A stretch of DNA of 64,000 nt, from NCBI RefSeq assembly GCF_000003815.2, contig NC_049989.1:20741448-20805447 (forward strand), written 5' to 3'. Position numbers and translations under genes: made by a program. The notes below the pieces were generated by a model. That model saw only the letters and a list, made by a program, of their open reading frames with translations, ran no database searches and had not been told where the DNA came from. Source of the DNA: Branchiostoma floridae (lineage: Eukaryota; Chordata; Leptocardii; Amphioxiformes; Branchiostomatidae). Below, in pieces: positions 24,101-27,100 of the stretch (position 1 is its first letter; each line of letters begins with the position of its first letter).

Positions 24101-27100
24101 GGAGACCTTACTCAGTTTTATCTATTTTGTACATATCTATAATCTACCTGGATATCTAATTACCTTGAATGATGTATTCAACGTTGTCCAAAAATGTCTT
24201 AACGTCCAGATATTACCTCATGTTTCTGTGAAGGTGTGAACTGAAGGATGACCGTCCTGACAGCTACCTGCAGACCATGAGAGAACAGATGAACGACAAG
24301 ACCCAGATGGTGAGCCGCGAAGAAGCATGGAATAGTCTTCTTCACATTTCTTCTTAAGTTTTTAAGAAATCCTTCTAAATAGTGTCACAATCATCAGTAA
24401 ATCAATATTTCACGGAGGTATGAGGTCTTCAAACTCATGTTTTTTTGGTTGTTTATTTATTTGTTTGTTGTAGGTGGTGTGCGTAGTGTCGAACAACCGA
24501 AAGGACCGGTACGACGCCATTAAGAAGTTCTGCTGCGTGGATCGCCCGGTGCCGAGCCAGGTCATCGTGAGTCGTACGCTGAGCAAGAAGCAGATGTTGA
24601 TGTCCGTGTGCACTAAGGTCGCTCTGCAGATGAACTGCAAGCTGGGAGGGGAGCTGTGGGGCTTGGAGATCCCGGTATGGTATGTTTGTAGATGCATAGG
24701 CCCTTTAAAGGGGCTTTCCACTCCAGACGGGACTATTATTTTCCGATAGATATTAATTGTAGGACGTGACAAATGCATACTACTTCACATTATACGACAA
24801 AGTACCCATTAGCCCCACGCGCATCAAAAAGCATTCAGTCTTCTACAAAACACACAATTACCATGAAATTAAATTAATTATTCTCAGCCTATGGCTGAAG
24901 ACAATGTGCCTGACAACGCCTGACTAAGTCACAAACCTAATTTCAGGGGCGCCAAGAAAAACATGTCTTGTTATGTGTTCTTTGATATCTTGTGACCTTT
25001 TTGATGTGCTTAGCGCCCCTCATTTATGGCGAAAATGGGTTTAGTGAGTGTCATGTTGTTTTACAAAGTGTCATATTGTTTTACAAACACACAATACGTA
25101 ATTCCCAACAAGTGGAATTCCATAAAAGGTCGGCTGATCATGTATTCATTGATACATTACCTATTGGAAAATAACACTCCCTTCTGCAGTGGAATGTCCC
25201 TTTAACAGAGATCAGAACTCATGTGCGGCGACTGGAGTTCTAGGTAATATGTCAAAGGTAAAGGCCCTGAAAAAAATAAACAAAACCCGCCTGGACATTG
25301 TTATGCAAATCGAAACAATGGTCGAGACACGGACACTGTTTTCAATTTCGGGGTACATTAAATTTTGTAACAACTTCTTGCGTATCGTATTGCCTGAATG
25401 TACAATATTTGACGTAAGAAAAGACTGTTTTAGCAGCCAAGTTGTCGTGCAGGATTGATTGCATCATCACTATCATCGGTCGGCTGCGGTGCCGTCATTT
25501 GCCGTCAGTTTGGACAAAGAGGGCATATGATGTCCTGAGCGGTTCCTCTACTTGCATTTTGAGGGCGTGTCCAATAAAGCGCAATTGGCGCTTTCAGACT
25601 TGATAATATTGGTTGCATTTCCTCCCATTGCCGCGCTCGCGGCTGAAGAAGCCGGTGGTGGTGGGCATCAACTGTTACCCTGATTTCCTCACTACCTCAT
25701 TTATGTTAGCCAAAAGAAAGTGCATGTTTGTATTTCCTGCCAATGTCTCGTTTGCAGATTAAGAATCTGATGGTGGTCGGGATTAACTGTTACCAGGACT
25801 CCCTCACCAAAGGCCAGTCCGTCGGTGGTGTCATCGCTTCCATTAACAGCTCCCTGACTCGCTGGTACTCGCGCTGCACCTTCCAGCGCTCCAGTCAGGA
25901 ACTCATCGATGGGCTGAAGGTCTGCTTGCAAGGTGAGTGGAACAGGTGTCATGGGTTCGAAGCCCAAGTATTATGATAAGCTATTCTAAATTATGAGGTT
26001 ATATGGTGAGGTTTGGTTCATATTTCAGCAGCTCATTGACGGGCTGAAGGCTGAAGGAGTGGAACAGGAGTCACGGGTTCGAAGCCAAAGATTTTGATAG
26101 AGATTTTTCAAGGCGAGTCAGAGGTTTAATGACTTCTCAGTAATCCGGCCGGGAGGTCATTAGGGGTCATAGGTTCGAAGCCCCCTGGTCATTATCTTTC
26201 TTGCTGTAAGTTCTTGGAATGCTTCTGGTTCAAGTCCAAAATAGCTATCAGCCGTAATTAGGTTGGTTATTACGGTGATGGGTTATGATTGCATGTTATT
26301 GTTTGCTATACTCTGCAGGGATAGGTACTAATCTCCAGGCAGATCTGCCGGTAAGGAGTTTAACTGGCCAAGGCGTGTTCTGAGCCACCGGTAACACTTC
26401 TTGGCTAGCTTAACTCCTTATGCTGCCGATCTACCGGCCTGGAGTTTGGAGTGGTACAAGAGGTTGTGGTTTCGAAACTCTTTTAGTCATCTAATGAACA
26501 ACTGACACGTTGTTACTCTGTAATAAGCACTGTTCACCGCTCCAGCCTTAAAACTGGTATGTCCATTTTAACTTACCGTTTCTCAAAAAAAGGAGACATA
26601 ATGTGATCTCGCTCCATCCATTGTTAACGTTACAGCCGCCCTGAAGAAGTATCAGCAGTTGAACATGAACCTCCCCGAGCACGTGATCTTCTACCGTGAC
26701 GGTGTGGCTCGCGGACAGCTAGACGCGGTTGTGGGGCAGGAGATTCCGCAGGTCATCGACACCTTCACGACATTCGGGGTCGACTACACGTGAGTAGCGT
26801 ACATGACCGTATAGCTAAGTGCACAACCTGCCGTACGTTTTTTTGTGGGGAGGCCACGTATTCCTGAAAACGTTCAGATGTACTAGGCAGGCGCGTCGCC
26901 CGTAGTGGCACGTACGGGGGGCGAAACCGCAGTCCGATGGTACACAAACTTTTGCCTCCACGTAAAGTTTTACGGCGTGTCTGCGTGCTCCATTATCCGT
27001 CGGATTCTCTTCAAGTTCGTACGGTGGCGTACTTACCACTTACGAATCCCAAAAGATTGCCCACGTTTTGGCATGAGCACGTATTTGCACGTACGACGGG

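What the first reader, a model, noticed from the sequence alone, without database searches (positions are those of the whole stretch)
25758..25932. PIWI protein with the first catalytic Asp replaced by Asn
In the intact 859-codon PIWI gene the slicer tetrad reads N630-E668-D700-H834. The motif GIDCYHD of animal PIWIL1 proteins is here GINCYQD (codon AAC). All four positions are offset by exactly two from the human PIWIL1 tetrad (632, 670, 702, 836), so the alignment is unambiguous. Asp-to-Asn at this metal-binding position is the classic experimental slicer-dead change. The glycine-rich GVGDGQ after the third Asp is also altered (GVARGQ). A natural N-E-D-H PIWI in an otherwise intact gene suggests a piRNA-binding, non-cleaving protein, or one that depends on a paralogue for cleavage.
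Basis: partly seen in the sequence, partly recalled or inferred. Interest (0 to 1): 0.82.

Follow-up and report, generated by a model that had tools for sequence, protein, structure and literature searches.

The report
Lancelet Piwi with altered cutting site
A lancelet has three neighbouring copies of a gene family that silences jumping genes by cutting RNA, and one intact copy has lost a key amino acid of its cutting site, so it probably binds RNA without cutting it well.

Summary
Window 15103-29324 (+) holds an intact 17-exon, 859-codon PIWIL1-type gene whose tetrad reads N630-E668-D700-H834 (AAC at 25785-25787). The own genome shows that this gene (C) is the third of three tandem PIWIL1-type genes in 86.5 kb. 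A and B keep D-E-D-H. Four published Bf-Piwil1 primers match gene B or its 3' flank exactly, so B is the gene in print, the species is Branchiostoma floridae, and C is another gene. A 2013 paper took three gene models within 80 kb for one misannotated gene; these were probably A, B and C.

C has also lost the histidine equivalent to AGO2 His600 (H633Q) and reads GVARGQ for GVGDGQ. The piRNA-end residues that I checked are kept. B-C dN/dS is 0.25, but C evolves faster than B. Best reading: a guide-binding, slicer-defective PIWIL1 paralogue beside sisters with complete tetrads, comparable to Drosophila Piwi (DVDK) but through a different residue. Loss of cleavage is inferred, not shown. Expression, other individuals and other lancelets could not be tested. 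A degenerate exon copy upstream also reads AAC, but does not date the change.

The parts
15103..29324 (+). Gene C: PIWIL1-type gene, 17 exons, 859 codons
   Evidence: Frame and splice sites; Pfam Piwi_N, PAZ, Piwi
15103..15268 (+). Exon 1, start codon, Arg-Gly-rich N-terminus
15970..16119 (+). Exon 2 (alternative acceptor 16006 gives 847 codons)
17439..17647 (+). Exon 3
17687..17902 (+). Two degenerate partial copies of exon 3 in intron 3 (17687-17772, 17826-17902)
   Evidence: 83% and 91% identity to exon 3
18080..18285 (+). Exon 4
18694..18888 (+). Exon 5
20176..20350 (+). Exon 6 (PAZ; Tyr343-Tyr344)
20815..20875 (+). Exon 7
21404..21521 (+). Exon 8
21684..22371 (+). Seven degenerate copies of the start of exon 9 in intron 8
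   Evidence: 84-98% identity over 34-46 bases
22509..22623 (+). Exon 9
23437..23624 (+). Exon 10
24234..24309 (+). Exon 11
24474..24674 (+). Exon 12 (MID; Tyr566, Lys570, Gln582, Gln605, Lys609)
25617..25693 (+). Degenerate copy of the end of intron 12 plus the first 51 bases of exon 13; also reads AAC; acceptor changed to GG
   Evidence: 20 differences of 77 from the working exon
25758..25932 (+). Exon 13: first tetrad residue (N630), Q633, and E668
25785..25787 (+). Codon AAC, Asn630 in place of Asp
26636..26789 (+). Exon 14: D700 and GVARGQ
27682..27807 (+). Exon 15
28340..28487 (+). Exon 16
29208..29324 (+). Exon 17: H834 and C-terminal Leu859

Best explanation
Gene C is the third member of a tandem PIWIL1-type cluster (A, B, C), and B and C are sisters. 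After C split from B its active site changed (D630N, H633Q, and Ala-Arg at 703-704), while the residues that hold the ends of the piRNA, and most of the protein, stayed under purifying selection. It most likely loads guide RNA through its MID and PAZ pockets, pairs with targets, and does not cut them or cuts them poorly. It would then act as a holder or carrier of guides and targets, while paralogues with complete tetrads (B, the published Bf-Piwil1, and A) cut. Shown: sequence, intact frame, paralogy, conserved residues, constraint. Inferred: guide loading, loss of cutting, division of labour.
For: N630 in an open frame of 859 codons, all 16 introns GT-AG. Asp in the five other rows. Second change at H633, the AGO2 His600 position that steadies the glutamate finger and is Lys617 in non-slicing Drosophila Piwi (mapping mine). 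Five MID residues, the C-terminal Leu and two PAZ tyrosines kept. B-C dN/dS 0.247. About 101 stops expected per unit of neutral divergence, none present. A and B read D-E-D-H. Drosophila Piwi gives a precedent: DVDK, loaded with piRNA, no slicing.
Against: No assay, no expression data, one assembly. E668, D700 and H834 are kept, which a long-dead slicer need not keep. C is less constrained than B (37 C-only against 7 B-only changes; 69:42 against 30:38 nonsynonymous:synonymous, P 0.021), which also fits slow decay. Two of nine unique deviations in an eight-residue active-site list is weak (P 0.047) and the list was chosen after the changes were seen.
Confidence: 0.6

Rival explanations
1. C is a decaying duplicate: selection has slackened, the active site was lost first, and the gene has little or no function.
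For: Faster evolution of C than of B (branch 0.23 against 0.045). Several changes in and around the active site.
Against: No stop, no frameshift, no broken splice site. Pairwise dN/dS 0.247. Only 9 deviations at 189 otherwise invariant sites, against 16 of 205 for A, which has a complete tetrad. Recent slackening cannot be excluded.
Confidence: 0.23
2. C still cuts: either Asn with E-D-H is enough for slow cutting, or the codon is changed in the RNA (A-to-I editing of AAC would be read as Asp), or Asn630 turns into Asp in the protein.
For: The other three tetrad residues are kept. AAC can in principle be edited to an Asp codon.
Against: No inverted repeat of 14 or more bases overlaps the exon between 24675 and 26640 (4 pairs, all in introns). 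Local fold not unusual (z -1.26, 24 of 200 shuffles as good). H633Q and A703-R704 would still be there.
Confidence: 0.09
3. Assembly error, or a rare null allele of the sequenced animal.
For: Only one assembly could be read; no reads and no other individuals.
Against: Further unusual residues lie around the site (Q633, A703, R704). The degenerate copy at 25617-25693 also reads AAC. A DNA search with the exon found no second copy of it apart from genes A and B (7 matches).
Confidence: 0.08

Closest known systems
Drosophila Piwi (DVDK; PMC7015924, passages read)
   Same: PIWI-clade protein with a broken tetrad, intact piRNA-end residues, and a changed residue at the AGO2 His600 position
   Different: Piwi keeps the first Asp and changes the second and fourth residues (Val, Lys); C changes the first and keeps E, D, H. 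Piwi's lack of slicing was measured; that of C was not
Bf-Piwil1 of B. floridae (gene B here; PMC3735472, passages and two sections read)
   Same: Tandem sister gene, 78.6% identical over 838 aligned residues
   Different: B has D-E-D-H and its maternal RNA lies in the germ plasm according to that paper; expression of C is unknown
Extra piwil1 genes of Lake Malawi cichlids (PMC11753138, passages read)
   Same: Expansion of piwil1 genes in a chordate
   Different: There the catalytic residues are kept and MID and PAZ are lacking in piwil1.3 and piwil1.4; here MID and PAZ are kept and a catalytic residue is lost
'Mirages' of amphioxus genes (PMC3087553, passages read)
   Same: Tandem copies of exon-intron boundaries inside introns, as in C, A and B
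   Different: The passages name globin and Adh3 genes and unnamed others; I saw no mention of Piwi genes in them

Membership tests
PIWI-clade Argonaute | N, PAZ and Piwi domains in one protein | tested here: met
   Pfam Piwi_N, PAZ, Piwi above cut-off; ArgoN below cut-off
PIWI-clade Argonaute | Gln (not Lys) at the Piwi Gln589 position, used in metal-dependent 5'-phosphate binding | tested here: met
   Q605; role from PMC7015924
PIWI-clade Argonaute | Binds piRNAs | not testable with these tools
   Six 5'-end residues and two PAZ tyrosines kept, binding itself not tested
PIWIL1 group | Groups with PIWIL1 rather than PIWIL2 | tested here: met
   A, B, C and PIWIL1 on one side, 100/99, in a tree of only six rows
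Slicing Argonaute | Complete D-E-D-H/D tetrad | tested here: not met
   N-E-D-H
Slicing Argonaute | Cuts a guide-matched target | not testable with these tools
Non-slicing PIWI of the Drosophila Piwi kind | Altered tetrad in an intact protein | tested here: met
Non-slicing PIWI of the Drosophila Piwi kind | Measured lack of slicing; co-transcriptional silencing | not testable with these tools
   none
Published Bf-Piwil1 | Matches the published primers | tested here: not met
   C has 5 of 25 and 5 of 22 mismatches; B has none
Pseudogene | Disabled frame or splice sites | tested here: not met

The most novel reading that the evidence does not exclude
Lancelets evolved, independently of flies and through a different residue, a dedicated non-slicing PIWI out of a tandem PIWIL1 duplication: a chordate counterpart of Drosophila Piwi that holds targets without cutting them, next to a germ-plasm slicer. 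PIWIL1-type function would then have been split into a cutter and a holder more than once.
Probability: 0.22. Interest if true: 0.75.

Novelty: new variant of a known kind. Interest (0 to 1): 0.52.

Why it matters
Which PIWI functions need cutting, and how PIWI paralogues share the work, is largely known from flies and mice (recalled). Here an invertebrate chordate has a slicer-defective candidate and two sister genes with complete tetrads within 86.5 kb, so the roles can be compared in one germ line. It also suggests a correction to the record: PMC3735472 read three gene models within 80 kb as probably one gene, whereas this assembly holds three intact genes of 63-79% protein identity in a span of about that size.

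Tried and rejected
1. That the gene is published Bf-Piwil1: rejected, the primers point to B.

2. That the degenerate exon copy dates the Asn: not supported. Over 77 positions copy and exon differ at 20, copy and B at 22, exon and B at 23. In the 51 exonic positions, polarised by gene A, copy and exon share 3 derived sites (the Asn base among them), copy and B share 3, exon and B share 1 (my reading of the site list). If B keeps the old form (ATCGAC), the Asn base was in a CpG, so two independent changes are possible.

3. RNA editing substrate: no inverted repeat over the exon, ordinary fold.

4. Haplotig duplicates: the genome search with exon 13 gave 7 matches: the exon itself, one in A, five in B and its intronic copies.

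5. Pattern search GGNATHRAYTGYTAYC: 48 hits against 30 for the reversed control; three lie in B and C, the other 45 were not examined.

6. Literature: none of the titles and abstract openings listed announces a natural Asp-to-Asn at this position in a PIWI protein; these listings are capped and the library lacks most subscription journals. I saw passages of PMC7015924, PMC10772731, PMC7806126, PMC5569025, PMC3087553 and PMC11753138, and passages plus two sections (one of them part 1 of 2) of PMC3735472; none whole.

7. No structure prediction was run; at 53% identity to the PIWIL1 chain it would not settle metal binding.

8. A first hand-made gene model was wrong in exons 2 and 4 and broke the frame; the next had 847 codons. 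The 859-codon model was kept because its exon 2 resembles those of A and B.

Full report
What is there. The window is C11:20,741,448-20,805,447 of a genome of 513,431,437 bases in 431 contigs. A 17-exon gene on the + strand, 15103-29324, encodes 859 residues without internal stop and with GT-AG at all 16 introns. Pfam finds Piwi_N, PAZ and Piwi. The best solved-structure match is Piwi-like protein 1, 978 bits over the full length. The catalytic exon reads GINCYQD with AAC at 25785-25787; E668, D700 and H834 are present. The finding is confirmed as stated. The numbering rests on acceptor 15970 for exon 2; acceptor 16006 gives 847 residues and shifts the tetrad by 12.

Which gene it is. The own-genome search with the Pfam Piwi model gave 37 exon-level matches (the tool calls its counts lower bounds). 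Three sets lie on C11 on one strand. I fetched the DNA between them and modelled the genes by exon alignment and splice sites: A 20,684,237-20,698,814 (862 residues), B 20,703,715-20,727,281 (864 residues), C 20,756,550-20,770,771. Equal intron phases were imposed in that search, so they are a consistency check, not independent proof. In A, exons 2 and 7 were chosen by hand from lower-ranked candidates and exons 1, 6 and 13 have uncertain ends; exon 1 of B is low-complexity. A reads GIDVYHD, QELIDG, YRDGVGDGQ, YAHKL; B reads GIDCYHD, QELIDG, FRDGVGDGQ, YAHKL: both D-E-D-H.

Published Piwil1 is gene B. The two primers of PMC3735472, stated to be designed from B. floridae orthologues, match B without mismatch at 20,713,561 and 20,725,972. 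Against C they have 5 of 25 and 5 of 22 mismatches. The reverse primer has 2 mismatches in A. The two qPCR primers named piwil1 in PMC7806126 match without mismatch at 20,728,088 and 20,728,199, 0.8-0.9 kb past the stop codon of B, presumably in its 3' untranslated region. This makes the species B. floridae with good confidence. PMC3735472 says that three gene models within 80 kb of scaffold 214 matched one cDNA cluster and were probably one misannotated gene. A to C spans 86.5 kb, so those models were probably A, B and C; I could not see them.

Comparison. B and C share 659 of 838 residues (78.6%), A and B 67.7%, A and C 62.8%; the PIWIL1 chain shares 57.7% with B and 53.0% with C. A six-row tree puts A, B and C together (99/98) and B with C (84/90, not a starred branch), with end branches 0.045 for B and 0.23 for C. 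Columns 630 (Asp) and 633 (His) are invariant in the other five rows; at 703-704 those rows have G or S and D or E, C has Ala-Arg. C deviates alone at 9 of 189 sites invariant in the other five rows; A at 16 of 205 and B at 4 of 193, each against four rows, and all 4 of B's are shared by C. Two of C's nine fall among eight residues that I took from the text on the AGO2 active site (D597, H600, S610, E637, R668, D669, E683, H807; mapping mine). Hypergeometric P is 0.047 (reckoned with 193 sites), weak because the list was chosen after seeing the changes.

Constraint. B against C, codons after residue 100: dN 0.132, dS 0.534, ratio 0.247; by domain 0.20 (MID) to 0.40 (linker 2). Polarised by A, C has 69 nonsynonymous and 42 synonymous changes, B 30 and 38 (P 0.021). 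Where A and PIWIL1 agree, there are 37 C-only and 7 B-only changes (chi-square 20.5). Sharing out dN by 69:30 and dS equally gives ratios near 0.34 for C and 0.15 for B (my arithmetic). C is constrained, but less than B. About 101 stops per unit of neutral divergence are expected in this frame, about 27 for half of dS 0.534; there is none. C was thus not unconstrained over its whole branch; recent slackening is not excluded.

Guide binding. The residues that hold the 5' end in Drosophila Piwi (Tyr551, Lys555, Gln567, Gln589, Lys593 and the C-terminal Leu843) have counterparts Tyr566, Lys570, Gln582, Gln605, Lys609 and Leu859 in C, and the PAZ tyrosine pair is kept. Not every contact residue was checked.

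How it probably works. Passages of PMC7015924 say that Drosophila Piwi has DVDK, is loaded with piRNA, does not slice, has Lys617 at the AGO2 His600 position, and slices when four residues are restored; the authors propose that losing slicing makes it a stable binding platform. In Siwi one tetrad change (H874K) nearly abolished slicing and another (E708V) only reduced it, so the effect of a single change is not certain beforehand. C changes the first tetrad residue and the His600 position. A defective slicer is likely by analogy and chemistry; the listings showed me no assay of Asp-to-Asn in a PIWI protein.

The exon copy. Positions 25617-25693 match the end of intron 12 and the first 51 bases of exon 13 (20 differences of 77) and also read AAC; the acceptor AG is GG. 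Such copies, called mirages, are described in amphioxus globin genes; A, B and C have several. The shared AAC would fit an Asn older than the duplication, but copy, exon and B are nearly equidistant, so its age is open. It makes a random sequencing error less likely.

Verdict. A real, intact, constrained PIWIL1 paralogue with an altered tetrad, in a tandem cluster that the paper seen here took for one gene: a new variant of the known kind 'slicer-defective PIWI'. Its function beyond sequence is inferred.

Noticed in passing
L017:7121-7211 and 7266-7356 (C149); L021:4377-4467 and 4816-4906 (C17): Both AGO genes have two tandem 91-base exons flanked by AG and GT that each encode the first catalytic Asp segment, one with GDEKKPS and one with GDGRKPS, in the same order in both genes. 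As 91 is not a multiple of three, using both would shift the frame, so they look like mutually exclusive exons. Like copies in the two genes share 73 and 69 of 91 bases, the two copies within a gene 63 and 65.
   Followed up: partly
L017:9129-9871 (C149:81129-81871): The AGO exon with the third catalytic Asp (RIIMYRDGVSEGQFQQV) stands in five nearly identical copies with a period of 152 bases, of the mirage kind.
   Followed up: no
Genes A and B, C11:20,688,668-20,689,037; 20,708,064-20,708,981; 20,719,321-20,720,062; 20,724,013-20,724,839: Runs of partial exon copies in introns: 3 of exon 5 in A; 6 of exon 3, 5 of exon 10 and 3 of exon 13 in B.
   Followed up: partly
window 4228-7365 (-): Open frame of over 1000 residues with endonuclease and reverse transcriptase domains, a non-LTR retrotransposon-like protein.
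   Followed up: no
window 9371-10807 (-): Open frame of 478 residues with leucine-rich repeats.
   Followed up: no
window 16350-17006 (-), in intron 2 of gene C: Open frame of 218 residues on the opposite strand, no Pfam match.
   Followed up: no
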